Shown one piece after another: positions 10,845 to 64,000 of a DNA stretch of 64,000 nt. Numbering within the stretch: position 1 is the first letter of the stretch; each line of letters opens with the position of its first letter. The stretch is from a virus: IMG/VR virus record IMGVR_UViG_3300030103_002937, positions 28,967 to 92,966 of that record; one strand, written 5' to 3'. A model generated the notes under the pieces. That model was not told where the DNA came from. It was given only the letters and a program-made list of their open reading frames with translations, and did not search any database. Made by a program: the position numbers and the translations under genes.

Positions 10845-11000
10845 ATGAAATATCCAGATGCAGATAAACACTTTTGGGCTAGTATGACAAAGAGTGTTAT
10901 AAGAGTAGGAGGCTATTGTCTCATTTTTATTGACATTGAAGTAGCAGCGGGTATACTTATCGCTAGCGAAGTAATCGGAGTAATAGAAGAATTAGTATGA
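10845..11000 (+). CDS. Small single-pass membrane protein
   Basis: 51 residues, MKYPDADKHFWASMTKSVIR, then a hydrophobic helix (residues about 21-45) ending IGVIEELV. This resembles a conserved tiny membrane protein in marine phages that begins KYPDxxKHFWxSMxKSxIR. It ends in ATGA overlap with the GP88-like gene, so the two are coupled. Confidence 0.65.
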   Translation: MKYPDADKHFWASMTKSVIRVGGYCLIFIDIEVAAGILIASEVIGVIEELV

Positions 11001-11602
11001 ATTTATTAACACAGAACGGGAAACTCAAGAAGACAAGCAAACAATTGGGAGTACGTGTATTCAATTTCGGAATACCAGCTTACAAGTCTGCGTCCGGCAA
11101 ACTTACTTGCCCTATGGCTGACTCCTGCGTAAAATTTTGTTACGCTAAAAAGGGAGCATACATATGGAGCAACGTGCAGCCGGCGTTTGAAAAGCGCTAC
11201 CAGCTCACCAAAACGGATGAGTTTGTAGAGGCAATGAACGTAGAGATTAAACGCAAGCGACCAGACTATGTGCGGGTCCATGATAGCGGAGACTACTACA
11301 GTCCCAAATATCTAAAGAAGTGGATCGAGATTGCTATACACAACCCGTCTGTTAATTTTTACAGTTATACTAATATGGTAGATATGTTTCATAAAACCGA
11401 TCTGCCACCTAACTTCGATATTATATTCAGTGATGCCGGTAAACAGGTGCATATGATTGATTATGAGCAAGATAGGTACACAAAGATATTCAAATCCGAT
11501 CAAGAGTTAGATCGTGCCGGGTTTGTAAATGCAAGCAAGGTAGATTTGTTTGCAACGAAATGGTTCAGTAAGAACAAAAAAATTGGACTAGTATATCACT
11601 AA
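10997..11602 (+). CDS. GP88-family protein
   Basis: 201 residues. A cysteine cluster CPMADSCVKFCYAKKGAY (about 37-54) follows a conserved N-terminal LGVRVFNFGIPAYKSASGKL. Later segments VRVHDSGDYYSPKYLKKWIE and NPSVNFYSYTNMVDMF match phage gene-88 family proteins (first named in mycobacteriophage). The three-Cys spacing recalls iron-sulphur or radical-SAM-like enzymes, but the function is not established. Coupled to both neighbours by ATGA/TAATG overlaps. Confidence 0.75.
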   Translation: MNLLTQNGKLKKTSKQLGVRVFNFGIPAYKSASGKLTCPMADSCVKFCYAKKGAYIWSNVQPAFEKRYQLTKTDEFVEAMNVEIKRKRPDYVRVHDSGDYYSPKYLKKWIEIAIHNPSVNFYSYTNMVDMFHKTDLPPNFDIIFSDAGKQVHMIDYEQDRYTKIFKSDQELDRAGFVNASKVDLFATKWFSKNKKIGLVYH

Positions 11603-16467: not shown

Positions 16468-18192
16468 ATGCAAGTAAACAATTCGGAGATCAATGGATTT
16501 TTGATTGACCAGTTTAATCAACATGACCTAGATGTGGGTAAGACGCAGGGGATTTGTCCTCTGTGCTCTCACACAAGGAAACCTGAGAATAAGAAACAAA
16601 AGTGCGCTTCTTACGATTGGGAACGGGGTCTCGGAACTTGCCATAATTGTGATCGCACATTTCAAATGCACACGTATCAGCGTAAAGGGGCGAGCGAAAA
16701 AGTATATGTTCGCCCTGAAACGCCTGATGCTATACACAATGTTTCGACTAATGTTGAAACGTGGTTTGAATCGCGAGGCATATCAAAGCATACACTTAAA
16801 GCGCTCAAAGTAACCGAGGGTCAAGAGTTTATGCCACAAACCGGTAAGACCGAGAATACCATACAGTTTAATTACTATATGGGCGATCAACTCATAAATG
16901 TAAAATACAGAGACGGTCGTAAGAACTTTAAGTTATATAAGGGTGCCGAAAAGGTTTTCTATAATATAAACAGTATCGTAGGATATGAGTATTGTATTAT
17001 TGTAGAAGGTGAAATGGACGCCCTTTCTTTATATGAAGCAGGTATTGAAAACGTAATATCAGTTCCTAACGGTGCAACACTAAATAATAACAATCTTGAT
17101 TACTTAGATAACTGTATTGATTACTTTACAGACAAAGAAAAGATTATTATAGCTGTTGACTCAGACGAGGCTGGACAAGCATTGCAAACAGAGCTTGTTC
17201 GTCGTTTAGGTGCTGAAGTATGTTACCTTGCTGATTTTAATGGTTGCAAAGACGCAAATGAATATTTATTAGAATATGGAAAAGAAGAGCTTGCAAAGCG
17301 TATTACAAAAGCAAGACCGGTACCCCTTGAAAACGTCACAACTTTCAAAGACATTGAGAATGAAGTTACTGACTTCGTTACTAATGGGTTCAAGCCCGGT
17401 TATCAAGTCGGGTTGGAAAATTTTGATGATATCTTTTCAACTTACACTGGTCAATTTATTACTGTTACTGGTATACCTTCTTCCGGTAAGAGTGACTTCG
17501 TCGATCAAATGGTCGTTGGATATAACTCGAACTATGGTTGGAAGACAGCGTTTGCTAGTCCAGAAAATGCGCCAACTTATTTACATGCCCATAAACTAAT
17601 GCGTAAGACGTGGCAAGATATGCCACGTAAATCAGATATCGGTACAGATAAATGGAATCAGGTAGCTGAACATGTAAATGATAATTACTTCTTTATTGAT
17701 ATGGAGCGTTACACTCTTGAAGCCGTACTTCGTAAAGGAGCAGAGCTTGTTAAGCGTAAAGGTATCAAATGTTTAGTAATAGACCCATTTAATAAGATAC
17801 GTGATGTTGATGCGGTTTCTGATGATGTAAATAGATATACAATGGACTATTTACAAAAGATTGAAATCTTTGCTAAGAAATATGATGTATTAGTTTTTAT
17901 TGTCGCTCACCCTACAAAAATGTATAAAGGTTCTGACGGACAAATAGAAGAACCTACAATGTACAATATAAAAGGCGGCGGCGAATGGTATGATGCTTCC
18001 TATCACGGTATATTAGTTCATAGAAATTATGAAGCTAAAACTGTCAAAGCTAAGGTGTTGAAAGTAAAGTTTCAAAACTTAGGTGAAAATGGTGCTGAAG
18101 CACATTTTAAATGGGAACCAAAGTCAGGTTGTTTTATACCTCACAGAGATATGGTCGTTAATGATGACCCGTTACCATGGGAAGCGGGCTAA
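16468..18192 (+). CDS. Bifunctional DNA primase-helicase (T7 gp4-like)
   Basis: 574 residues. N-terminal zinc-binding domain with CPLC (30-33), a Cys near 49 and CHNC near 60. Toprim core IIVEGEMDALSLYEAGI (about 172) and IIIAVDSDEAGQAL (about 228). Linker, then a RecA/DnaB-type hexameric helicase with Walker A GIPSSGKSD (about 337), Walker B LVIDPFNKIRD (about 433) and VFIVAHPTKM (about 472). Length and order match T7 gp4. It unwinds DNA and makes primers. No partner DNA polymerase is found in the window. Overlaps the next gene by 16 bp. Confidence 0.93.
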   Translation: MQVNNSEINGFLIDQFNQHDLDVGKTQGICPLCSHTRKPENKKQKCASYDWERGLGTCHNCDRTFQMHTYQRKGASEKVYVRPETPDAIHNVSTNVETWFESRGISKHTLKALKVTEGQEFMPQTGKTENTIQFNYYMGDQLINVKYRDGRKNFKLYKGAEKVFYNINSIVGYEYCIIVEGEMDALSLYEAGIENVISVPNGATLNNNNLDYLDNCIDYFTDKEKIIIAVDSDEAGQALQTELVRRLGAEVCYLADFNGCKDANEYLLEYGKEELAKRITKARPVPLENVTTFKDIENEVTDFVTNGFKPGYQVGLENFDDIFSTYTGQFITVTGIPSSGKSDFVDQMVVGYNSNYGWKTAFASPENAPTYLHAHKLMRKTWQDMPRKSDIGTDKWNQVAEHVNDNYFFIDMERYTLEAVLRKGAELVKRKGIKCLVIDPFNKIRDVDAVSDDVNRYTMDYLQKIEIFAKKYDVLVFIVAHPTKMYKGSDGQIEEPTMYNIKGGGEWYDASYHGILVHRNYEAKTVKAKVLKVKFQNLGENGAEAHFKWEPKSGCFIPHRDMVVNDDPLPWEAG

Positions 18193-18464
18193 GTAAAAAG
18201 AAACAATGGTGGACTCCAATGCCTTCATATGCAAGATCACCTGAAGAAGAAGCTGCATACCAATGGTGTGTAAAGAATAATATAAAAATATCACCGTTTG
18301 CAGCATCAAGTGATAAAGTTAACAATGAATGGTGGATTGATATTGAAACAAACAATCTAAACAAAAGAAGTCCTTATAAGTATAACAGAGACCAAATATG
18401 GTCTAAAATATTTGAATTATATGTTTTCTACTATAAGAAATACGGATTACGAAATACAGTATAG
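18177..18464 (+). CDS. Conserved phage protein of nucleotide block
   Basis: 95 residues. WWTPMPSYARSPEEEAAYQW, NNIKISPFAASSD and WWIDIETNNLNKRSPYKY resemble a conserved phage protein of unknown function usually found near thymidylate-synthase or helicase genes. It overlaps both neighbours (16 and 44 bp). Confidence 0.7.
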   Translation: MGSGLSKKKQWWTPMPSYARSPEEEAAYQWCVKNNIKISPFAASSDKVNNEWWIDIETNNLNKRSPYKYNRDQIWSKIFELYVFYYKKYGLRNTV

Positions 18465-19212
18465 AGATATTATACAAAGTTGCTTAAGCAATGAAGCTGT
18501 ATATAGAGAAGACCGAACAGGTATTGGTTGCTATTCAGTATTTAATAAACAAATAGATATTGAAGTTGGTAACAAGTTTCCTGTAATTACCGGTCGTAAA
18601 ATGTTTCCTAAAGTATTCAATACTGAAATGCTTTGGTTTTTAAATGGTGAAACAAATATAAAAAGATTCAAAGATGCAGGCGTAAAGATATGGGACGCTT
18701 GGGCTGACGAAGATGGCGAACTGGGGCCTGTTTATGGTCATCAGCTTAGAAACTTCAGCGGTCGAGGTTATGATCAGCTAGAAAGCGTTATAGATAGCTT
18801 AAAAAGCGACCCAGACAGTCGTCGCCATGTAATATCGCTATGGAATCCGGTGCAACTTGAATATATGGCTTTGCCACCTTGCTATTTATATTTTCAGTTC
18901 TTTGTTGAAAACGGCAAACTTAATATGTTTGTTGTACAAAGATCAGGTGATATGTATTTAGGTGTGCCATACGACATTGCACTATTTACACTAATTATGA
19001 ATTATGTAGGTGAAAAAACAGGATTGTTACCAAACAGATTATCAGTTAATATAGTTGACGCTCATGTATACAAAAATCAATTAGAAGCAGTTAATAAGTA
19101 TTTAGACACAAATATTTTATCAACACCTTCATATAGATTTTGTACAGAACGAGGCGCCCGACTAATTGATTATCAGTCTGGTCCGCATATTCCAGCACCT
19201 GTAGCAGTATAA
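18421..19212 (+). CDS. Thymidylate-synthase-family enzyme, likely dCMP hydroxymethylase
   Basis: 263 residues from ATG 18421; a TTG three codons earlier is also open. The ThyA fold is clear: REDRTGIG, WDAWADEDGELGPVYGHQLR, DSRRHVISLWNP, catalytic Cys154 in ALPPCYLYFQFFV, RSGDMYLGVPYDIA and IVDAHVYKNQ. Two residues that define dUMP enzymes are changed. The His after the catalytic Cys is Tyr155, and the Asn that reads the uracil ring (FNIA in ThyA, N177 in E. coli) is Asp185 (PYDIA). Asp at that site is the known hallmark of T4-type dCMP hydroxymethylase. I infer a dCMP substrate, giving 5-hydroxymethyl- or 5-methyl-dCMP. Confidence 0.85.
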   Translation: MFSTIRNTDYEIQYRDIIQSCLSNEAVYREDRTGIGCYSVFNKQIDIEVGNKFPVITGRKMFPKVFNTEMLWFLNGETNIKRFKDAGVKIWDAWADEDGELGPVYGHQLRNFSGRGYDQLESVIDSLKSDPDSRRHVISLWNPVQLEYMALPPCYLYFQFFVENGKLNMFVVQRSGDMYLGVPYDIALFTLIMNYVGEKTGLLPNRLSVNIVDAHVYKNQLEAVNKYLDTNILSTPSYRFCTERGARLIDYQSGPHIPAPVAV

Positions 19213-20898: not shown

Positions 20899-21028
20899 AG
20901 ATTGGTCATTAAGTTTAGGAACATATCCAGGAATATTATTTGGTATGCGTACGTATCATGGTGACACGCATTCTCAAACTGTGTTTTACTTACCGTTTAT
21001 TGATGTTGCTTACGAAGTTGAAAAATAA
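20867..21028 (+). CDS. Hypothetical 53-aa protein upstream of nrdB
   Basis: The ATG at 20867 (MLKNTKGRATKDWSLSLGTY) is preferred; an upstream in-frame ATG at 20825 would overlap the basic-protein gene deeply. A beta-rich body ends DVAYEVEK. Its stop overlaps the start of the nrdB-like gene (TAATG). Confidence 0.6.
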   Translation: MLKNTKGRATKDWSLSLGTYPGILFGMRTYHGDTHSQTVFYLPFIDVAYEVEK

Positions 21029-21987
21029 TGGGATTGTTTGATGAGCGCGTAGCGTACAAACCGTTTGAGTATCCTGATTATTATACAGAGGGCTGGTTAA
21101 AACAGGCTCAGGCATTTTGGTTGCATACTGAAATACCAATGCAAAGTGACATAAAAGATTGGAAAGAAAAATTAACACCTGAAGAAAAAAACTTAGTAGG
21201 CAATATATTATTAGGTTTTGCTCAGACAGAATGTGCAGTATCAGATTACTGGACACAAAAAGTCGTATCATGGTTTCCTAAACATGAAATACAGCAAATG
21301 GCTATGATGTTTGGTTCACAAGAAACAATACATGCTGTAGCTTACAGTTATTTAAATGAAACATTAGGACTTGAAGATTATGAAGCTTTTTTACACGAGC
21401 CGGCGACTGCTGGAAGGTTTGACAATCTGGTTAGTTATAGTGGTACCAATCCTGTCGGGATTGGCCGCTCTCTTGCTATCTTTAGTGCTTTTGCTGAAGG
21501 GGTTAGCTTATATTCTGCATTTGCTGTTCTTTATAGTTTCCAGTTAAGAAATTTACTGAAAGGTATAGGTCAACAAATGAAATGGAGTGTACGAGATGAA
21601 TCACTTCACAGTAAAATGGGTTGTAAGCTTTTCCGCGATATGTGCAAAGAAACACCTGGTTTACTAGAAGATTGTCAAAAAGATATAGCTGAAGCTGCTA
21701 AAACAATGGTAGACTTAGAAGAAAAGTATATTGACAAAATGTTTGAAATGGGTGATATTGAAAACCTAAAAGCATCTGATCTTAAACAATTTATTAGAAA
21801 AAGAGCAAATGAAAAATTACAAGAGCTTGGATATTCAGCCTTCTTCGATGTCGATACTGAAGCGGCTGATAACCTTGATTGGTTTTATCATCTTACCGGT
21901 GGTCATACTCATACAGATTTCTTCGCTATTCGTCCAACTGATTACTCAAAGGCTAACGAAGGAGAAGACTTTGAAGACATTTGGTGA
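21028..21987 (+). CDS. nrdB: Ribonucleotide reductase class I, beta subunit
   Basis: 319 residues. Di-metal ligands are visible: Glu in FAQTECAVSDYW at the first position, E-x2-H in QETIHAVAY, Glu in FAEGVSLYS, and E-x2-H in VRDESLHSKMG. The radical Tyr four residues after the first His (HAVAY) is kept. The first ligand is Glu where E. coli NrdB has Asp, a variation seen in some class I subgroups. The C-terminal FEDIW tail should dock on NrdA. Together they make dNDPs for phage DNA synthesis. The gene order beta-before-alpha differs from bacterial nrdAB. Confidence 0.92.
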   Translation: MGLFDERVAYKPFEYPDYYTEGWLKQAQAFWLHTEIPMQSDIKDWKEKLTPEEKNLVGNILLGFAQTECAVSDYWTQKVVSWFPKHEIQQMAMMFGSQETIHAVAYSYLNETLGLEDYEAFLHEPATAGRFDNLVSYSGTNPVGIGRSLAIFSAFAEGVSLYSAFAVLYSFQLRNLLKGIGQQMKWSVRDESLHSKMGCKLFRDMCKETPGLLEDCQKDIAEAAKTMVDLEEKYIDKMFEMGDIENLKASDLKQFIRKRANEKLQELGYSAFFDVDTEAADNLDWFYHLTGGHTHTDFFAIRPTDYSKANEGEDFEDIW

Positions 21988-22259: not shown

Positions 22260-22446
22260 GCTGGGTTACATGGGGACTGGTTTTTTTGTAACTGCTCCCC
22301 ATATGCTACCTGACACACCAGGTGTAGTAATATATTTTTTAGCTGGTTTGTTTTGTACACCGCAAGTGTGGGTTGCAAAGCAATGGAACTTAGTAATAGT
22401 AAACTTAAATGTAATGATAGCCTACGCGCTACTATTTTTTAAATGA
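22213..22446 (+). CDS. Small two-pass membrane protein
   Basis: 77 residues from ATG 22213 (MVKERKLSPTERLANRLGYM); ATG 22168 and ATG 22270 are alternatives. Two hydrophobic segments are visible (GVVIYFLAGLFCTPQVWVA and NLVIVNLNVMIAYALLFF). The APHMLPDTPGV...PQVWVAKQWNLVxVN core has the look of a conserved phage inner-membrane protein of unknown function. Its stop overlaps the nrdA start. Confidence 0.6.
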   Translation: MVKERKLSPTERLANRLGYMGTGFFVTAPHMLPDTPGVVIYFLAGLFCTPQVWVAKQWNLVIVNLNVMIAYALLFFK

Positions 22447-24212
22447 TGTGGAATAATGAATGGAAAAAAGGTGTCGACTACCCATCTTGGGGAGACACGG
22501 AAGTATACAAGAAGACTATATCCGGGGGATATCTACATATGGGAGAGTCTCCAAGAGACGCATACAAAAGAGTCGCAACAACAGTTGCAAGACGATTGTA
22601 CAAACCAGAGCTAGCAGATACATTTTTTGATTACATTTGGAAAGGGTGGTTGTGTTTAGCGTCTCCGGTTTTATCTAATACAGGTACCGATCGTGGTTTA
22701 CCTATATCATGCTTTGGGATTGACGTAGGAGACAGCATACACGATATTGGTACAAAGAATTTAGAAATGATGATGCTTGCCAAACACGGTGGGGGTGTTG
22801 GTATCGGAGTTAACATGATTCGTCCCGCCGGAGCTAAAATCACAGGAAATGGAACATCAGATGGAGTCGTACCCTTCTGCAAAATCTACGATAGCACAAT
22901 TCTTGCAACCAATCAAGGATCAGTTAGACGCGGAGCTGCAAGCGTTAATATCAACATTGACCACGGAGATTTTGAAGAGTGGCTTGAAATACGAGAGCCT
23001 AAAGGAGATGTCAACAGACAATCGCTTAACTTACATCAGTGCGCAGTGGTTGGCGATAAGTTTATGCGAAAGCTTGAACGAGGAGATGCAGAAGCTAGAT
23101 CTAAATGGAGTAAACTTCTTAGAAAAAGGAAAAGCACCGGAGAACCGTATATCCTTTTTAAAGGAAACACTAATAAAGCAAATCCAGCAGCGTACAAAGA
23201 CAACGCTTTAAAAGTGCATATGACTAATATCTGTAGCGAAATAGTATTGCACACAGATGAGTCGCATAGCTTTGTTTGCTGTTTAAGCAGTTTAAATGTC
23301 ACTAAGTATGAAGAATGGAAGAATACAAACCTTATCTACGATGCTATCTGGTTTCTTGATGGAGTCTTGGAAGAGTTTATTCAGAAGGCTAAAGGGCTTA
23401 CAGGTTTTGGAAACTCTGTTAGATCTGCTGAGAAGGGCAGAGCACTTGGCTTGGGAGTCTTGGGTTGGCATACGTACCTGCAACAAAACGGTGTACCCTT
23501 TGAAGGATTACAAGCACAGTTCCAGACAAGACGTATATTTAGCCAAATTAAGATTGAATCTGAACGAGCATCAAGAGCGCTTGCTGAGGTTTATGGTGAA
23601 CCTCTTTGGTGTCGTGGCACTGGCTTTCGCAACACTCATCTTAGGGCTGTTGCTCCTACTGTGTCTAATAGTAAGCTTGCCGGTAATGTTAGTCCTGGTG
23701 TTGAGCCTTGGGCCGCTAATGTTTTCACTGAACAAAGCGCGAAGGGTACGTTCATTAGGAAAAACAGAGAACTAGAAAAAGTACTTCGTAAAGTTGGAAT
23801 CAACGTCAAAGAAACGTGGGATAAAATTATGGCCGACGGCGGGAGTATACAAGATATCGAAGAGTTAGATAACTGGGGATATGTTAATGGTAAGCTTACG
23901 CTTATTGAGGACTCAAAATCGTACGATCTAACGGGCTTTGATAAAGTTAAAGATGTATTTAAAACCTTTAAAGAAATAAATCAATTAGAGCTAGTTAATC
24001 AAGCCGGCATACGTCAGCAGTATATTGACCAATCTGTCAGTTTGAATTTAGCTTTTCCTTCTGAAGCGTCGCCTAAGTGGATTAATCAAGTTCATATGGA
24101 CGCCTGGAAAAAAGGTATTAAAACATTATATTACATGCGGACAGAGTCTGTACTGAGAGGCGATATAGCTGCAAGTGCTATGGACCCAGACTGTGTTGCT
24201 TGTGATGGGTAA
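22443..24212 (+). CDS. nrdA: Ribonucleotide reductase class I, alpha subunit (no ATP-cone)
   Basis: 589 residues. Catalytic elements in order: first redox Cys in PISCFGIDVG (about 89), the N-x-C-x-E active site in MTNICSEIV (about 262), second redox Cys in VCCLSSLNV (about 280), the Tyr pair in KTLYYMRTES and the C-terminal CVAC shuttle pair. The protein starts directly in the catalytic core; the N-terminal ATP-cone of most NrdA proteins is absent, so overall activity would not be switched off by dATP. Last gene of the rightward arm, followed by a terminator. Confidence 0.93.
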   Translation: MMWNNEWKKGVDYPSWGDTEVYKKTISGGYLHMGESPRDAYKRVATTVARRLYKPELADTFFDYIWKGWLCLASPVLSNTGTDRGLPISCFGIDVGDSIHDIGTKNLEMMMLAKHGGGVGIGVNMIRPAGAKITGNGTSDGVVPFCKIYDSTILATNQGSVRRGAASVNINIDHGDFEEWLEIREPKGDVNRQSLNLHQCAVVGDKFMRKLERGDAEARSKWSKLLRKRKSTGEPYILFKGNTNKANPAAYKDNALKVHMTNICSEIVLHTDESHSFVCCLSSLNVTKYEEWKNTNLIYDAIWFLDGVLEEFIQKAKGLTGFGNSVRSAEKGRALGLGVLGWHTYLQQNGVPFEGLQAQFQTRRIFSQIKIESERASRALAEVYGEPLWCRGTGFRNTHLRAVAPTVSNSKLAGNVSPGVEPWAANVFTEQSAKGTFIRKNRELEKVLRKVGINVKETWDKIMADGGSIQDIEELDNWGYVNGKLTLIEDSKSYDLTGFDKVKDVFKTFKEINQLELVNQAGIRQQYIDQSVSLNLAFPSEASPKWINQVHMDAWKKGIKTLYYMRTESVLRGDIAASAMDPDCVACDG

Positions 24213-57731: not shown

Positions 57732-58175
57732 CTATCTTTCTTTATCGTTATTTATTCTTTTGATTGCAACCTGAAGCATCCTATCTGTATACGCTTTACT
57801 TTTAATTACACTTTGTGTTGCGCTGCTGGGAATATCTTCTTCACCTGTAAGTATTCTATAAACACGGGCTAATAGCTGTGTTGTTTTTAAAGATACTTTA
57901 TATAGACTGCCTTTGCTATCTGATTTGTTACCTCTTCGCCATAATACTATCCAGCCTTCTTTTAGAAGTCGTGAAAACCTATTATTGTCCCAGCTGTATG
58001 CATATGTATCAAGTTTAAAATCTGTTTTACTAAAAAAACCTTGACAGTCTAAAAATAAAAGAAGCTCCAGATCTGCATCTTTTATACCGTAATTTCTGCA
58101 CGCCCATCTTCTAACTATACGGTAGTGCTTTAATACGTTTGAGTCACGCAAATCTGAAGCCTTTATTGTTCTCAT
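57732..58175 (-). CDS. Winged-helix DNA-binding-like late protein
   Basis: 147 residues. VLKHYRIVRRWACRNYGIKD, ADLELLLFLDCQGFFSKTDF and NNRFSRLLKEGWIVLWRRGN show helix-helix-wing spacing, and the second half is YKVSLKTTQLLARVYRILTG. Similar proteins are conserved in Bacteroidota phages next to late genes and may regulate late transcription. It overlaps the groES-like gene by 4 bp. Confidence 0.65.
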   Translation of the reverse strand: MRTIKASDLRDSNVLKHYRIVRRWACRNYGIKDADLELLLFLDCQGFFSKTDFKLDTYAYSWDNNRFSRLLKEGWIVLWRRGNKSDSKGSLYKVSLKTTQLLARVYRILTGEEDIPSSATQSVIKSKAYTDRMLQVAIKRINNDKER

Positions 58176-58432
58176 AATATAACGACTACATCCTGCGCTT
58201 TGATTACATTGTACACTTTATTTTCTAACTCAATGGAATGGCCGGCGTGCCTATCATAATAAATAGCATCGCCAGCCTTTATTCCCACTATATCGGCGCC
58301 CGCTGATATTACGCTTGCTTTTGCGTATCTTATATCTTCACGGGCATTTTCTGCAATTAGCAGACCGCCTTCTGTTTTTTGTGAACCTTGTTTTTCTTTT
58401 TCTACTATTAAGTAATATCCGATCGCTTTCAT
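58172..58432 (-). CDS. groES: GroES co-chaperonin (Cpn10)
   Basis: 86 residues: MKAIGYYLIVEKEKQGSQKT, EGGLLIAENAREDIRYAKAS, VISAGADIVGIKAGDAIYYD, ENKVYNVIKAQDVVVI. This is GroES order and length, with the mobile loop QKTEGGLLI that contacts GroEL. The dome loop is short. ATGA overlap with groEL (gene order groEL-groES, reversed from bacteria). It probably folds a phage protein such as the capsid or fibre, or replaces host GroES. Confidence 0.85.
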   Translation of the reverse strand: MKAIGYYLIVEKEKQGSQKTEGGLLIAENAREDIRYAKASVISAGADIVGIKAGDAIYYDRHAGHSIELENKVYNVIKAQDVVVIL

Positions 58433-59979
58433 AACTGTTCTATTCTAACGTTATTAATTACACAATCGGTTGATATAATTGTTGTGGCTACTGAAGCCGC
58501 GTTCCGAAGAGCGCTTTTAGTAACAAGTAGCGGGTCGATAATTCCAGATTTAATCATATTCACCATACCCCCTGTAACAACATTTAACCCTCTGCCTTTA
58601 ATAGTAGGCTCTTCAAATTCTTCAATACCTGCATTACTAAGTATCGTATAAAAAGGCGCTTTAATTGACTTATAAAGTAGTTCTTCGCCTTTGCCGTCAG
58701 CTTTTATTTTCTGAGCAGCATTTAAAAGGGCTATTCCACCACCTGGTACTATACCTTCTTTAATCGCGGCTTTTGTAGCACATATAGCGTCTTCAACTCT
58801 ATCACGCTTTTCTTTTAATTCAACTTCTGAATTAGCGCCGACTTTTACAACGGCAACTTTTGCAGATAACCTTGCCAATCTTTTTTCATACCTAATTTTA
58901 TGGCCAGGCAACATTGGCTTTTCAAGTTCTTCTTGTATTGTTTTAATTTTTTCTTCTACCTCGTTAGATTTACCCTCAACTTGTAGAACAGTTTCTTCTG
59001 AATTAGTAACAGCTTTAACACAGGTGCCGAGCATTTCAATGTCTATGAGATCCATATCGTCTCCAAGATCCTCATTAATAACCTTAGCTCCTGTAAGCAT
59101 ACAAAGGTCCTGCATGACTTCCTTTCGCGTTACACCATAAGTTGGTAAATCAATTACATTAACCTTTATATTGCCTTTCATTTTATTCATTGCAAGAGTG
59201 TTCAGCACTTGAGGCTCAACATCTGCAATAACTAATAATGCTTTATTCTTTTTTATAACATGTTCCAACACCGACTGAATTCTACGTATATTTGGTATTG
59301 GCGATTCCGATATCAATATATAAGGGTTATCCAGCTCTGCAGCATTTATATTTTCGTTTGTTATAAAGTGATTAGATTTAAGCGGCTGATCGTATTGTAC
59401 ACCATCAACAACCTCTATTGTTGTATCGGGCTCATCTGTTGTTTGCATAATAACCACACCTGTATTTCCTACAGATTTAAATGCATCGCTTATAAGCTTA
59501 CCAAGTTCTTTATCATTGTTTGCAGATATAGTAGCTACTTGGTCAATCATATCACCGTCAACCGGTATTGCAATCTTTTCTAAATATGCAATTACTTTTT
59601 CAACACCACTTGCAATCCCTTCTTTTAATGTTCGCGAGCTATCTTGATCTAATGCTTTATATGCATTTTTAAGAATTGAATGCGCAAGTACAGTTGCAGT
59701 TGTTGTACCGTCGCCGGCTTCTTGTACGGTTTTACGAGCAGCATCTTTTAAAAGTGTTGCGCCCATATTTTCAACAGGATCACGCAAAAATATATTATTT
59801 GCCACTGTTACACCGTCTTTTGTAATTACCGGATTTCCTTTATCGTTTTCAAGTATTACGCTAAGACCGCTAGCCCCGAGTGTGGAGCTAACGGCTTTTG
59901 TTAGCTTTTCAATACCATTGTAAACCTTAGAGCGAGCGTCGCTACCAAAGTTTAAGTTCTTAACTATTGCGTCAGACAT
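58429..59979 (-). CDS. groEL: GroEL chaperonin (phage-encoded)
   Basis: 516 residues, about 30 shorter than bacterial GroEL. ATP-binding motifs are TKDGVTVANN (about 53) and AGDGTTTATVLAHSIL (about 86-101). The catalytic Asp is in RVEDAICATKAAIKEG, followed by the conserved VPGGGIALLNA. The apical domain contains GNTGVVIMQTTDEPD and NIRRIQSVLEHVIKKNKALL. The C-terminal (GGM)n tail is missing; it ends VRIEQL. Cooperates with the adjacent GroES, and would assemble a folding chamber in the host cytoplasm late in infection. Confidence 0.93.
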   Translation of the reverse strand: MSDAIVKNLNFGSDARSKVYNGIEKLTKAVSSTLGASGLSVILENDKGNPVITKDGVTVANNIFLRDPVENMGATLLKDAARKTVQEAGDGTTTATVLAHSILKNAYKALDQDSSRTLKEGIASGVEKVIAYLEKIAIPVDGDMIDQVATISANNDKELGKLISDAFKSVGNTGVVIMQTTDEPDTTIEVVDGVQYDQPLKSNHFITNENINAAELDNPYILISESPIPNIRRIQSVLEHVIKKNKALLVIADVEPQVLNTLAMNKMKGNIKVNVIDLPTYGVTRKEVMQDLCMLTGAKVINEDLGDDMDLIDIEMLGTCVKAVTNSEETVLQVEGKSNEVEEKIKTIQEELEKPMLPGHKIRYEKRLARLSAKVAVVKVGANSEVELKEKRDRVEDAICATKAAIKEGIVPGGGIALLNAAQKIKADGKGEELLYKSIKAPFYTILSNAGIEEFEEPTIKGRGLNVVTGGMVNMIKSGIIDPLLVTKSALRNAASVATTIISTDCVINNVRIEQL

Positions 59980-60737: not shown

Positions 60738-63700
60738 TTATTTGTCTTCTAAGGTTTGTATTTTTTTTTCTAAATTTTTTATTTTATTATTTAACTCTTT
60801 TACAGAATTTATTAAAGCGAAAGTTAATGCATGGCTATCAAAGTTGTAAAGCTCTGTATTTTCTTCATCTTCTTCATTTAGCTTGGCATTATATTTTTTA
60901 ACCGTTTCGGGTATAATATCTTTTACTTCCTGGGCTATAACACCAATATTATTTTTATCATTAGTATCAAATCCTGCTTTTCCATTGTAATCAAAAAGCT
61001 TTGGTTCAATTTGCAACAGCTCTTGAAGCCCTGTTGTATAAGGCCGTATATTTGTTTTTACTCTTTTATCAGATACGATAGTCCACGCACTAGATGACGG
61101 TTTGGCTGCTGAGTCGGTTCCTAGCTGCAGCTTGAATGACGGGCTAGAAGTACCAATACCACAATTCCCATCGAGAATTAATATATCTGAATAAGTACCT
61201 TTTATTTTAGCTCCGTCACCAATTTGCTCTATATCTCCAAGTTCAAAAACAGTGCTACTATTTGGTGTTATTTCAAACCAGCTATCACCTTGGCCTTGAA
61301 CCTTAAACGCAGCAGTACTTTGGGAGCTATGATCAACATGAAGCCTTGCTGATGGGGATGTTTCATTAATTCCAAAGTTGCCACTCGAATTCAATACAGC
61401 TGCTGTTGACCCTGAAGCTTTAAAAGTTATTCCACCACTTGTAGGGTTTAATTCTATATTTCCAGATCCTTGTAATGTGAACGTTGCTCCTGATAAACCG
61501 TTTTGTATTGCTAGTCTGTTGGAAGCGCTACCTCCCCATTCTAACAGATTATATTGCCCTAATCGAATGTTTCCTGACACATCAAGTTTAGCACCCGGCG
61601 AAGTTGTTCCAATACCTAAATCACCCGTATTTCGTAAAGTCATTTTGGTGTTAGCATTATGCGTACCTCCAATTCCCCAATAAATTGTTCCGGTTGAAGA
61701 AGCGTTTGTGATATAATATGAACCTCTATTTCCTATTATACCATATCCGCTAATCCTTGTTTGTTCCCCCGCTGGGGTTGGGTTGCCAGTATCAAGACCG
61801 TCAATAATAGCTGCATTGTTGAAACTTGCTGAACCGTTGACATCAAGTTTAGTTGAAGGCGAAGATGTGCCAATGCCGACGTTGCCCTCTGAAATGTGAT
61901 TGCTAGTTCCGTCAGTATAGAATGCAATTTTTTCAACACCGGCATTGTACATATGCAACCTTGCTTTACCGCCCGCTTTTTCAGCTAATTTTATTAAAGG
62001 ATTCGTGTTTGCATTTGCTTGAATTGTTATTCCTGAATCAGCAGCGCTTGTTGAATTTGATTTAACTGTTAAAGGTGAAGTGGGCGAAGTTGTTCCGATA
62101 CCAACGTTGCCCCCGTTAAAATATGAATTACCGTTTGCCCGAATAACAGTTTTAATTGTGTTTGTGTTGTCATACACTCCAAAATAATAACTATCCCTGT
62201 GGAATATAAATCTATTTGAAGTTCCGTCCGTCCCTCTTGTAATAAATAAATTTGAAGACGTTCCACTTGTTGCGTTATCTCCGCTTGAAAGAAACCAGCT
62301 GCCTCCAGCAGTTGCAAAATTCACAGCAGCGTATCTTGTTGTACTGCTTGAATCATGTATTCTAACAATTGGATTGTCAGAGCTAATAGTTAATTTTTCA
62401 GAGGGTGAAGCCGTGCCGATCCCTACGTTGTCACCACTGCTGCCGTTTAAAATTAAATCGTAACCATTATTTGCCCTTAGTTCAACGTCGGCGTTGTTGA
62501 TTGCCCTAAATCTATTTGAATAAATTATATTTGTACTATTATCAACTCTTATATGTCCAGCAACGTGAAGTTTTTGACCCGGTGAGGTCGTTCCTATTCC
62601 TACGTTGCCGCCATTAAAATAGCTATCTCCATAGGTTCTTACAAGAGTTGTAACTACTCCGCCGTCTGTGCCTTTTAAAACCCCGCCAGAAGAATTTCCT
62701 TCGATTCTCATATAATGATTTGCATCATAAAGTGCGGCAACATGCCTTGTTCCAGTAGCTTGTATATTTCCGTCAACTGTCAGTCTTTGGCTTGGAGAAC
62801 TTGTTCCTATTCCAAAATTGCTTCCTGTATTTATATAACTGTCGCCGTTACCTCTTATCTGAACAGTTTGTGTTCCTGAACTAAATATTTGCAGATACCC
62901 TTCATCAGCGTCCCTTGTTAGTGTAAGTGCAGTATTTCCTAAGTCACTTTCTTTGAGAAATATTCTACCACCACTGATTGTCATGTCACCGCCCGAATCA
63001 ATTTGCATTCGTTCTGTTGCATTTGTATAAAAGCGAATAGGTTTTGCCCCTTGTGTATAAAGAAACATGTCGTCACTCGTTCCAGTTGTTCCAACATATC
63101 CGGTCCTTGTGCCGGTTGAATCTCTAAAATCAATAAAAGTACCGTTTGCGTCAGAATTGTTGTTTTGTAACCTAATAATGCTGCCGTCGCCTTCAGCATG
63201 TAGCTTTGCGCTTGGTGAGGTCGTCCCGATACCAACGTTGCCACCACTAGTGATACGCATTTTTTCTGTGTCATTAGTATCAAACGCCATAGAATCGTCA
63301 GCATGCCTATACACTATTTGACCTACATTATTATCCCCTCCAGCATCCGCAAAATCTACAGAACTAATAGCACTTGCTGCAGCTTTTATTTGAACGCTAG
63401 CGCTACCCGATGGGTTATAAGCTCTAATTAAATCAGGCCCTTCAATATCTAGTCTATAGCTTGGGCTAGTTTTTCCAATACCGATGTTGCCGGAGGTGTT
63501 TAATGTTACTCTAGTTGCACCATTTGTTACATCTCTAATTTGAAATTTTTCACCATCAGACTGGTCAATTCTTAAAACATATTCTTGCGCAGATGTTTTT
63601 AATTTTAAGAACGGGTCGCCTGTAGAATTATCAATTATTATGTCGCCTCTAGATGTTAAATCTCCATTAATATCCAGCTTAGACGCAGGCGTAGTAGTTC

Positions 63701-64000
63701 CGATACCAACATCTCCGGCGTTAGTAACTACCATTCTAACATTGCTATTAGTTGAAAAAACTAAATTAGTAGCATTAGCGGTTACATGCTGATTTCCGTA
63801 CCTTAGCCTAGACCCGACTGTTCCATCTAAATTTATATAAGCAGACGAATTAGCCCCTTTTATTAAACCAGTTGAGGTTTTAATAGTTCCGTTTACTTCC
63901 AATTTTTCACCCGGTGAAGTCGTACCAATTCCAACATTACCTCCTCCATTAACTAAAAATAAAGCTGGGTCTGAACCTTTTCTTATAATAAAGTCAGGTT
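60738..64000 (-). CDS. Tail fibre, C-terminal part with S74 chaperone domain
   Basis: The frame enters from the right edge and stops at 60738, at least 1087 residues. Twelve GNVGIGTTSP-type motifs separate beta-rich modules. The C-terminal 110 residues are an intramolecular chaperone/peptidase S74 domain: SDKRVKTNIRPYTTGLQELL (Ser-Asp-x-Arg-x-Lys-x-Asn-Ile, the autocleavage motif), IGVIAQEVKDIIPETVKK, then a trimeric coiled coil (LINSVKELNNKIKNLEKK). The domain folds the trimer and is then released by self-cleavage before the SDKR serine. It may be the same gene as the N-terminal fibre part at the left edge, if the map is circular. Confidence 0.93.
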   Translation of the reverse strand, partial: PDFIIRKGSDPALFLVNGGGNVGIGTTSPGEKLEVNGTIKTSTGLIKGANSSAYINLDGTVGSRLRYGNQHVTANATNLVFSTNSNVRMVVTNAGDVGIGTTTPASKLDINGDLTSRGDIIIDNSTGDPFLKLKTSAQEYVLRIDQSDGEKFQIRDVTNGATRVTLNTSGNIGIGKTSPSYRLDIEGPDLIRAYNPSGSASVQIKAAASAISSVDFADAGGDNNVGQIVYRHADDSMAFDTNDTEKMRITSGGNVGIGTTSPSAKLHAEGDGSIIRLQNNNSDANGTFIDFRDSTGTRTGYVGTTGTSDDMFLYTQGAKPIRFYTNATERMQIDSGGDMTISGGRIFLKESDLGNTALTLTRDADEGYLQIFSSGTQTVQIRGNGDSYINTGSNFGIGTSSPSQRLTVDGNIQATGTRHVAALYDANHYMRIEGNSSGGVLKGTDGGVVTTLVRTYGDSYFNGGNVGIGTTSPGQKLHVAGHIRVDNSTNIIYSNRFRAINNADVELRANNGYDLILNGSSGDNVGIGTASPSEKLTISSDNPIVRIHDSSSTTRYAAVNFATAGGSWFLSSGDNATSGTSSNLFITRGTDGTSNRFIFHRDSYYFGVYDNTNTIKTVIRANGNSYFNGGNVGIGTTSPTSPLTVKSNSTSAADSGITIQANANTNPLIKLAEKAGGKARLHMYNAGVEKIAFYTDGTSNHISEGNVGIGTSSPSTKLDVNGSASFNNAAIIDGLDTGNPTPAGEQTRISGYGIIGNRGSYYITNASSTGTIYWGIGGTHNANTKMTLRNTGDLGIGTTSPGAKLDVSGNIRLGQYNLLEWGGSASNRLAIQNGLSGATFTLQGSGNIELNPTSGGITFKASGSTAAVLNSSGNFGINETSPSARLHVDHSSQSTAAFKVQGQGDSWFEITPNSSTVFELGDIEQIGDGAKIKGTYSDILILDGNCGIGTSSPSFKLQLGTDSAAKPSSSAWTIVSDKRVKTNIRPYTTGLQELLQIEPKLFDYNGKAGFDTNDKNNIGVIAQEVKDIIPETVKKYNAKLNEEDEENTELYNFDSHALTFALINSVKELNNKIKNLEKKIQTLEDK
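61605..61865. repeat. Fibre module repeat shared with left edge
   Basis: This stretch is closely similar (by eye well above 80%) to 301-560. Both encode a module containing NNA..DGLDTGNP, RISGYG.IGNRGS.YITN and TIYWGIG..HN..TKMTLRNTG. The left-edge copy is less similar to other modules, so this is a specific duplication of one module type. Confidence 0.75.
63913..64000. repeat. 88-bp perfect direct repeat, copy 2 (truncated by edge)
   Basis: Identical to 969-1056 and continuing past the window edge. See copy 1. Confidence 0.9.

What the first reader, a model, noticed from the sequence alone, without database searches (positions are those of the whole stretch)
18421..19212. ThyA-family enzyme with the residues of a dCMP hydroxymethylase
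The catalytic Cys154 is kept, but the two residues that read uracil in thymidylate synthase are changed: the His after Cys is Tyr155, and the Asn in xFNIA is Asp185 (VPYDIA). Asp here is the switch that makes T4 gp42 prefer dCMP. The phage may therefore make 5-hydroxymethyl- or 5-methyl-dCMP and carry modified cytosine in its DNA, hiding it from restriction.
Basis: partly seen in the sequence, partly recalled or inferred. Interest (0 to 1): 0.75.

Follow-up and report, generated by a model that had tools for sequence, protein, structure and literature searches.

The report
Phage enzyme predicted to methylate dCMP
A phage of Bacteroidetes bacteria, related to flavobacterial phages, carries a thymidylate-synthase relative whose active site is rewired to act on cytosine nucleotides, next to a partner nucleotide hydrolase, so it probably builds its DNA with chemically marked cytosine that shields it from bacterial restriction.

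Summary
The ORF at 18421-19212 is a full-length ThyA-fold protein with Cys154-Tyr155 and Asp185 exactly where E. coli TS has Cys146-His147 and Asn177. The CY/Asp pair holds in all 52 IMG/VR loci of one clade (about 45-98% identity), against His/Asn in 43 of the other 44 TS loci fetched with it.

Independent evidence for dCMP as substrate is stronger than the residues. The next gene, a GIY-YIG-like/MazG fusion, has 204 IMG/VR relatives. In the 80 best, the gene just upstream is a TS-superfamily enzyme with Asp wherever that residue could be read, never Asn. Three enzyme types fill the slot: T4-gp42-type hydroxymethylases (most), the CY/Asp type, and CH/Asp ThyA. None of 43 ordinary TS loci has this MazG.

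The 'hydroxymethylase' label is not supported. The published hydroxymethylase signature (Asp/Glu three before Cys, Ser/Thr two before Tyr, no C-terminal tail) is absent; Leu, Pro and the complete TS tail are present, as in engineered TS N229D, which methylates dCMP. Best reading: a natural dCMP C5-methylase feeding 5-methylcytosine into phage DNA, with MazG supplying dCMP. No dedicated kinase or polymerase was recognised, so the pathway is incomplete on paper.

The parts
18421..19212 (+). ThyA-superfamily enzyme, predicted dCMP C5-methylase (CY/Asp type), 263 aa
   Evidence: Pfam PF00303 8.4e-75; residues and relatives; AF2/Foldseek TM 0.90 to E. coli TS
18880..18885 (+). codons for catalytic Cys154 and Tyr155 (TS Cys146-His147)
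18973..18975 (+). codon for Asp185 (TS Asn177, T4 gp42 Asp179), pyrimidine-selecting position
   Evidence: role from PMC8670742, PMC6400193
18871..18873 (+). codon for Leu151, three before Cys (TS Leu143; Asp145 in T4 hydroxymethylase)
   Evidence: signature in PMC6400193
18727..18729 (+). codon for Pro103, two before Tyr105 (Ser94 in T4 hydroxymethylase)
   Evidence: signature in PMC6400193
19189..19209 (+). codons of the TS-type C-terminal tail (IPAPVAV), absent from T4 hydroxymethylase
   Evidence: PMC6400193
19216..19971 (+). GIY-YIG-like N-terminal region (weak) fused to MazG nucleotide pyrophosphohydrolase; predicted to turn dCTP into dCMP for the upstream enzyme
   Evidence: Pfam MazG 3.5e-6; N-terminus T5orf172/MUG113 at E 0.004, below curated cut-offs; 204 relatives in IMG/VR; linkage
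16468..18192 (+). primase-helicase, conserved upstream flank of the slot
   Evidence: phrog_239 1.5e-87; same flank in gp42-type phages
18177..18464 (+). small conserved ORF between primase-helicase and the enzyme, function unknown
   Evidence: found in 11 of 13 compared phages
21028..21987 (+). ribonucleotide reductase small chain (nucleotide supply, same gene block)
   Evidence: Pfam PF00268 5.9e-60
22443..24212 (+). ribonucleotide reductase large chain
   Evidence: Pfam PF02867 4.9e-88

Best explanation
The protein is a natural dCMP C5-methylase derived from thymidylate synthase. Cys154 attacks C6 of dCMP, Asp185 holds N3/N4 of cytosine instead of the uracil edge, methylene-tetrahydrofolate donates the carbon, and, because the TS tail, Trp91, Leu151 and Pro103 that close off water and support hydride transfer are kept, the product is 5-methyl-dCMP and dihydrofolate. 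The downstream MazG enzyme hydrolyses dCTP to dCMP, draining normal dCTP and feeding the methylase, as MazZ feeds PurZ in phage S-2L. The m5dCMP is phosphorylated by an unidentified phage or host kinase and polymerised, so cytosine in virion DNA is replaced fully or partly by 5-methylcytosine, which blocks many restriction enzymes. Shown here: sequence, fold, residues, linkage and slot exchange. Inferred: substrate, product, MazG substrate, incorporation and benefit.
For: Asp at the 177 position in all 52 CY loci and invariant in a 12-member alignment. Published: N177D/N229D turns TS into a dCMP methylase, and positions 177 and 147 are the top two that separate TS of cytosine-modified phage contigs from unmodified ones (PMC8670742). 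MazG linkage: 47 of 49 distinct CY/D contigs against 0 of 43 CH/N contigs. In 80 loci chosen by MazG alone, the upstream gene carries Asp wherever readable: 60 gp42-type, 4 CY, 3 CH, gp42-type also in most loci tblastn missed; no Asn. Enzyme type changes about 6 times on the MazG tree, at least 2 forced by starred branches for the gp42 type. Hydroxymethylase signature absent, TS-type Leu/Pro/tail present. Deoxyribose-type Arg134/Ser175 rather than the Lys/Ala of CMP enzymes. Precedent for MazG feeding a base-replacement enzyme: PMC8342488.
Against: No dNMP kinase recognised with T4 gp1 as query (no positive control) and no family-A DNA polymerase in the close relatives, so a complete replacement pathway is not seen. 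The same slot usually holds a hydroxymethylase, which could mean that hydroxymethyl is the wanted product. The TS gene of phage DoCa6, same genus as the 5mC phage Xp12, has Asp at 177 but Ser at Y-2 and Asn at C-3, unlike the query. T4 dCTPase gp56 shows no detectable homology to this MazG.
Confidence: 0.62

Rival explanations
1. dCMP hydroxymethylase by a different route: Asp185 selects dCMP, but water rather than hydride ends the reaction, giving 5-hydroxymethyl-dCMP and hydroxymethylcytosine in DNA, as in the gp42-type phages that share the slot.
For: Same slot and same MazG partner as gp42-type hydroxymethylases with the full signature (CT, Asp, Ser) in about 60 loci; repeated exchange; Tyr155 is a new active-site residue whose effect on water is unknown.
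Against: Leu151, Pro103 and the complete C-terminal tail are kept in the CY loci; D145N alone abolishes hydroxymethylation in T4dCH (PMC6400193); no family-2 glycosyltransferase in any of 34 records of either type, so no tailoring enzyme speaks for a hydroxymethyl handle.
Confidence: 0.2
2. The enzyme makes 5-methyl-dCMP that is deaminated to dTMP, as suggested for Xp12-infected Xanthomonas, so it serves thymidylate supply rather than cytosine replacement.
For: A paper on a new thymidylate biosynthesis in Xp12 infection is cited in PMC11946847 (only its title was seen); the most distant CY member, L017, has a dCMP deaminase about 1.5 kb downstream.
Against: No dCMP deaminase in the query record or in 30 other relatives; the slot is mostly occupied by hydroxymethylases, whose product cannot become dTMP.
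Confidence: 0.06
3. An ordinary or drifting thymidylate synthase in which the two residues changed without changing the substrate.
For: Overall ThyA fold, tail and most TS residues are kept; RNR genes lie nearby.
Against: Asp is invariant over the whole clade, co-occurs with a MazG that ordinary TS lack (0 of 43), and is kept across exchange with unrelated dCMP-type enzymes. N177D is known to switch the substrate.
Confidence: 0.05
4. A dCMP-modifying enzyme of either chemistry whose product is used only at low level or in a non-DNA pool, so virion cytosine is mainly unmodified.
For: No recognised kinase or family-A polymerase.
Against: The conserved MazG partner suggests active removal of normal dCTP; the kinase search had no positive control.
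Confidence: 0.07

Closest known systems
Engineered thymidylate synthase N229D/N177D (dCMP methylase; Liu & Santi 1992, Hardy & Nalivaika 1992, cited in PMC8670742)
   Same: TS scaffold with tail, Leu and Pro kept, Asp in place of Asn
   Different: Natural, whole clade, also has Tyr for His147; not yet assayed
Phage T4 gp42 dCMP hydroxymethylase and its relatives in the same slot of sister phages
   Same: Asp at the pyrimidine-reading position, catalytic Cys; same genomic slot and MazG partner in sister phages
   Different: gp42 type has Asp145, Ser94, Thr after Cys and no tail; query has Leu, Pro, Tyr and a full tail
Xanthomonas phage Xp12 dCMP methylase
   Same: Predicted reaction and final base (5mC)
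   Different: Xp12 record not held; the related DoCa6 enzyme is very distant (PC/Asp, Ser and Asn at the signature positions) and sits beside a dCMP deaminase
TS homologues of cytosine-modified contigs in the MetaGPA survey (PMC8670742)
   Same: Same two differential positions, 147 and 177; TS co-occurs there with a pyrophosphohydrolase domain
   Different: That study did not, in the text read, describe this clade, the GIY-YIG-like/MazG fusion or the slot exchange
MazZ-PurZ module of phage S-2L (PMC8342488)
   Same: MazG-type hydrolase next to a base-replacement enzyme, supplying its monophosphate
   Different: Purine chemistry; includes a dATPase; different enzymes

Membership tests
Thymidylate synthase superfamily (ThyA fold, PF00303) | Full-length ThyA domain and fold | tested here: met
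   PF00303 8.4e-75; TM 0.90 to E. coli TS
Thymidylate synthase superfamily (ThyA fold, PF00303) | Catalytic Cys, phosphate-binding Arg pair, folate-site Glu | tested here: met
   C154, R134/R135, E69 invariant
True thymidylate synthase (dUMP) | Asn at the 177 position | tested here: not met
   Asp185
dCMP-type enzymes of the superfamily | Asp at the 177 position | tested here: met
   Asp185 aligned with T4 gp42 Asp179
dCMP-type enzymes of the superfamily | Turnover of dCMP | not testable with these tools
   needs enzyme assay
dCMP hydroxymethylase (T4 gp42 type) | Asp/Glu three residues before Cys | tested here: not met
   Leu151; criterion from PMC6400193
dCMP hydroxymethylase (T4 gp42 type) | Ser/Thr two residues before the active-site Tyr | tested here: not met
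   Pro103
dCMP hydroxymethylase (T4 gp42 type) | No TS-type C-terminal tail | tested here: not met
   IPAPVAV tail present
CMP hydroxymethylase (MilA/BcmA) | Lys and Ala at ribose-selecting positions | tested here: not met
   Arg134/Arg135 and Ser175; criterion PMC5175136
dCMP methylase | Asp177 on a TS body with intact tail | tested here: met
   chemistry known from engineered TS
dCMP methylase | Forms 5-methyl-dCMP; 5mC in virion DNA | not testable with these tools
   needs assay and LC-MS
MazG-type nucleotide pyrophosphohydrolase (downstream gene) | MazG domain with acidic metal motif | tested here: met
   PF03819 3.5e-6; EE.GE and DAIGD conserved
T4 gp56 dCTPase | Detectable homology of MazG partner to gp56 | tested here: not met
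   hhalign probability 2.3%

The most novel reading that the evidence does not exclude
A distinct clade of natural dCMP methylases has repeatedly traded places with T4-type hydroxymethylases beside one dedicated MazG fusion, so closely related phages switch between 5-methyl- and 5-hydroxymethylcytosine genomes by swapping a single gene, possibly to escape modification-dependent restriction.
Probability: 0.45. Interest if true: 0.72.

Novelty: new variant of a known kind. Interest (0 to 1): 0.52.

Why it matters
Phages with fully methylated cytosine are very rare among isolates (Xp12 is the usual example). This clade suggests that they are common among uncultivated Bacteroidetes phages, and that the choice between 5mC and 5hmC can change by exchanging one gene while the rest of the phage stays the same. 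That makes a clean natural comparison for testing how modified bases meet type II and type IV restriction, and it offers ready-made dCMP methylases plus a candidate dCTPase for enzymatic 5mC DNA synthesis.

Tried and rejected
Xp12 itself (MT664984) and two Bosavirus records (LR743532, OK275492) are not held; DoCa6 was used instead and is too distant for a direct test. The top phage hit, Pseudomonas phage Y10, is an ordinary CH/Asn TS in a region that looks bacterial. Glycosyltransferase search to tell 5hmC from 5mC phages: none in either type, uninformative. Kinase search with T4 gp1: nothing, but no control rang. Homology of the MazG to T4 gp56: none. Gene-content comparison of gp42-type and CY-type genomes: only a ligase-like ORF and a 107-aa neighbour looked gp42-type specific, nothing that names the product. 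Considered and dropped: Tyr155 as a specificity proof, since Val/Asn enzymes exist.

Full report
What is there. The window lies at 28967-92966 of a 92,966-base virus record. Its portal protein is closest to a circular podovirus record and to phages of Maribacter, Flavobacterium, Cellulophaga and Tenacibaculum, and a 97% identical enzyme gene with the same MazG neighbour lies on a contig of a Bacteroidetes metagenome bin, so a Bacteroidetes host, probably a flavobacterium-like one, is likely.

The residues. Cys154, Tyr155 and Asp185 are as described and align with TS Cys146, His147 and Asn177 and with T4 gp42 Cys148, Thr149 and Asp179. In the alignment of 12 relatives all three are invariant. 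An IMG/VR search with that alignment, added to the first set, gave 52 CY/Asp loci, 43 CH/Asn loci and one CH/Asp locus. With the three diagnostic columns masked, the CY/Asp enzymes form one clade (support 99). In the literature, Asn177 to Asp is the known dUMP-to-dCMP switch, and in the MetaGPA survey positions 177 and 147 were the top two that separate TS of cytosine-modified contigs from those of unmodified contigs (PMC8670742). Position 147 is not decisive by itself: TS of Paenibacillus and relatives have Val there with Asn at 177.

The neighbour. Four bases after the enzyme's stop codon begins a 251-aa protein with a C-terminal MazG domain and an N-terminal region with weak GIY-YIG-superfamily matches, below the curated cut-offs. 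It has 204 relatives in IMG/VR. In the best 80, taken without regard to any TS gene, the TS-superfamily gene ending some 4-19 bases upstream in nearly all is gp42-type with Asp (60), CY/Asp (4) or CH/Asp (3); 12 were not read by tblastn, of which four lie at contig ends and most of the rest show a gp42-type ORF on inspection. None has Asn. Conversely a profile of this MazG finds a hit in 47 of 49 distinct CY/Asp loci and in 0 of 43 CH/Asn loci. The CY/Asp clade shares ancestry, so these 49 are not independent; the independent part of the argument is that three distinct enzyme types sit in the same slot, with about 6 changes on the MazG tree (quick search, SH-aLRT only), at least 2 forced by well supported branches for the gp42 type. 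The genomes around the slot are otherwise alike: sigma factor, primase-helicase, terminase, portal, GroEL/GroES.

Methyl or hydroxymethyl. The structure of the T4 hydroxymethylase ternary complex gave a signature: Asp or Glu three residues before the catalytic Cys, Ser or Thr two before the active-site Tyr, and no C-terminal tail; D145N cannot hydroxymethylate (PMC6400193). The gp42-type genes in the sister phages meet it. The query and its clade do not: they have Leu, Pro and the TS tail ending in V/I. This is the pattern of engineered TS N229D, which makes 5-methyl-dCMP. Arg134/Arg135 and Ser175 argue for a deoxyribose substrate rather than CMP (PMC5175136). I therefore predict dCMP methylase, at about 3 to 1 over hydroxymethylase.

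Mechanism. dCTP is hydrolysed to dCMP by the MazG partner (inferred from linkage; the same arrangement, MazZ feeding PurZ, is proven in phage S-2L, PMC8342488); dCMP is methylated with methylene-THF; m5dCMP is phosphorylated and incorporated. No T4-gp1-like kinase was found (without a positive control), no family-A DNA polymerase and no dCMP deaminase in the close relatives, so kinase and polymerase would come from the host or from unrecognised genes. The absence of a deaminase speaks against use for dTMP supply, except in L017, which has one.

Benefit. In published tests Xp12 DNA with 5mC resists about 90% of commercial type II enzymes (PMC7653180). A gain against restriction is therefore plausible but not tested here.

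Novelty. The reaction and the Asp switch are known, and environmental TS homologues with these positions have been associated with modified cytosine. What I did not find described in the held papers is this clade with its dedicated MazG fusion, and the exchange of methylase-type for hydroxymethylase-type genes at one slot. No isolate in the held phage collection carries a close relative of either protein: the best-ranked TS matches are at most 43% identical, and the MazG fusion matches only over its C-terminal 40%.

Noticed in passing
G000:C1:1-28404 against window 1-63902 (L020, L021): The 93-kb record holds two terminase large subunits and two portals: a siphovirus-like module before the window and a podovirus-like genome in it. 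They meet next to a 1691-aa tail-fibre ORF (C1:28404-33479) that is 29% identical to a second fibre ORF at window 60738-63902. Probably a chimeric assembly or two phages joined.
   Followed up: partly
window; G005, G007, G018-G024, G031-G039: No family-A DNA polymerase was found in the query record or in its closest relatives, and none was recognised by eye in the phages compared gene by gene, despite primase-helicase and ERF genes; the Maribacter phage Panino, a portal relative, does have a DNA polymerase.
   Followed up: partly
window 58172-59979 (-): Phage-encoded GroES and GroEL pair, conserved in all compared relatives.
   Followed up: no
L065:3581-4492, L074:2838-3677, L098:935-1816: A further ThyA type, CH/Asp with a tail extended by two residues (LSVGK/LSVGN), in the same slot before the MazG gene; probably an independent Asn-to-Asp switch.
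   Followed up: partly
L017:8705-11394: The most distant CY/Asp member (47% identity) lacks the MazG gene but has a dUTPase-like ORF, a dCMP deaminase and a family-A DNA polymerase nearby; its product might go to dTMP.
   Followed up: partly
L184:1540-2364: A CH TS with FDI (Asp) instead of FNI in an otherwise ordinary TS context, without MazG in the locus: a possible unrelated Asp switch.
   Followed up: no
window 10997-11602 (+): GP88 family protein (Pfam PF17338), unknown function, in the early gene block.
   Followed up: no
G031, G032, G036, G039: A ligase-like ORF (judged by eye from its sequence) with a 107-aa neighbour occurs in all four gp42-type genomes compared and in none of eight CY-type genomes.
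   Followed up: no
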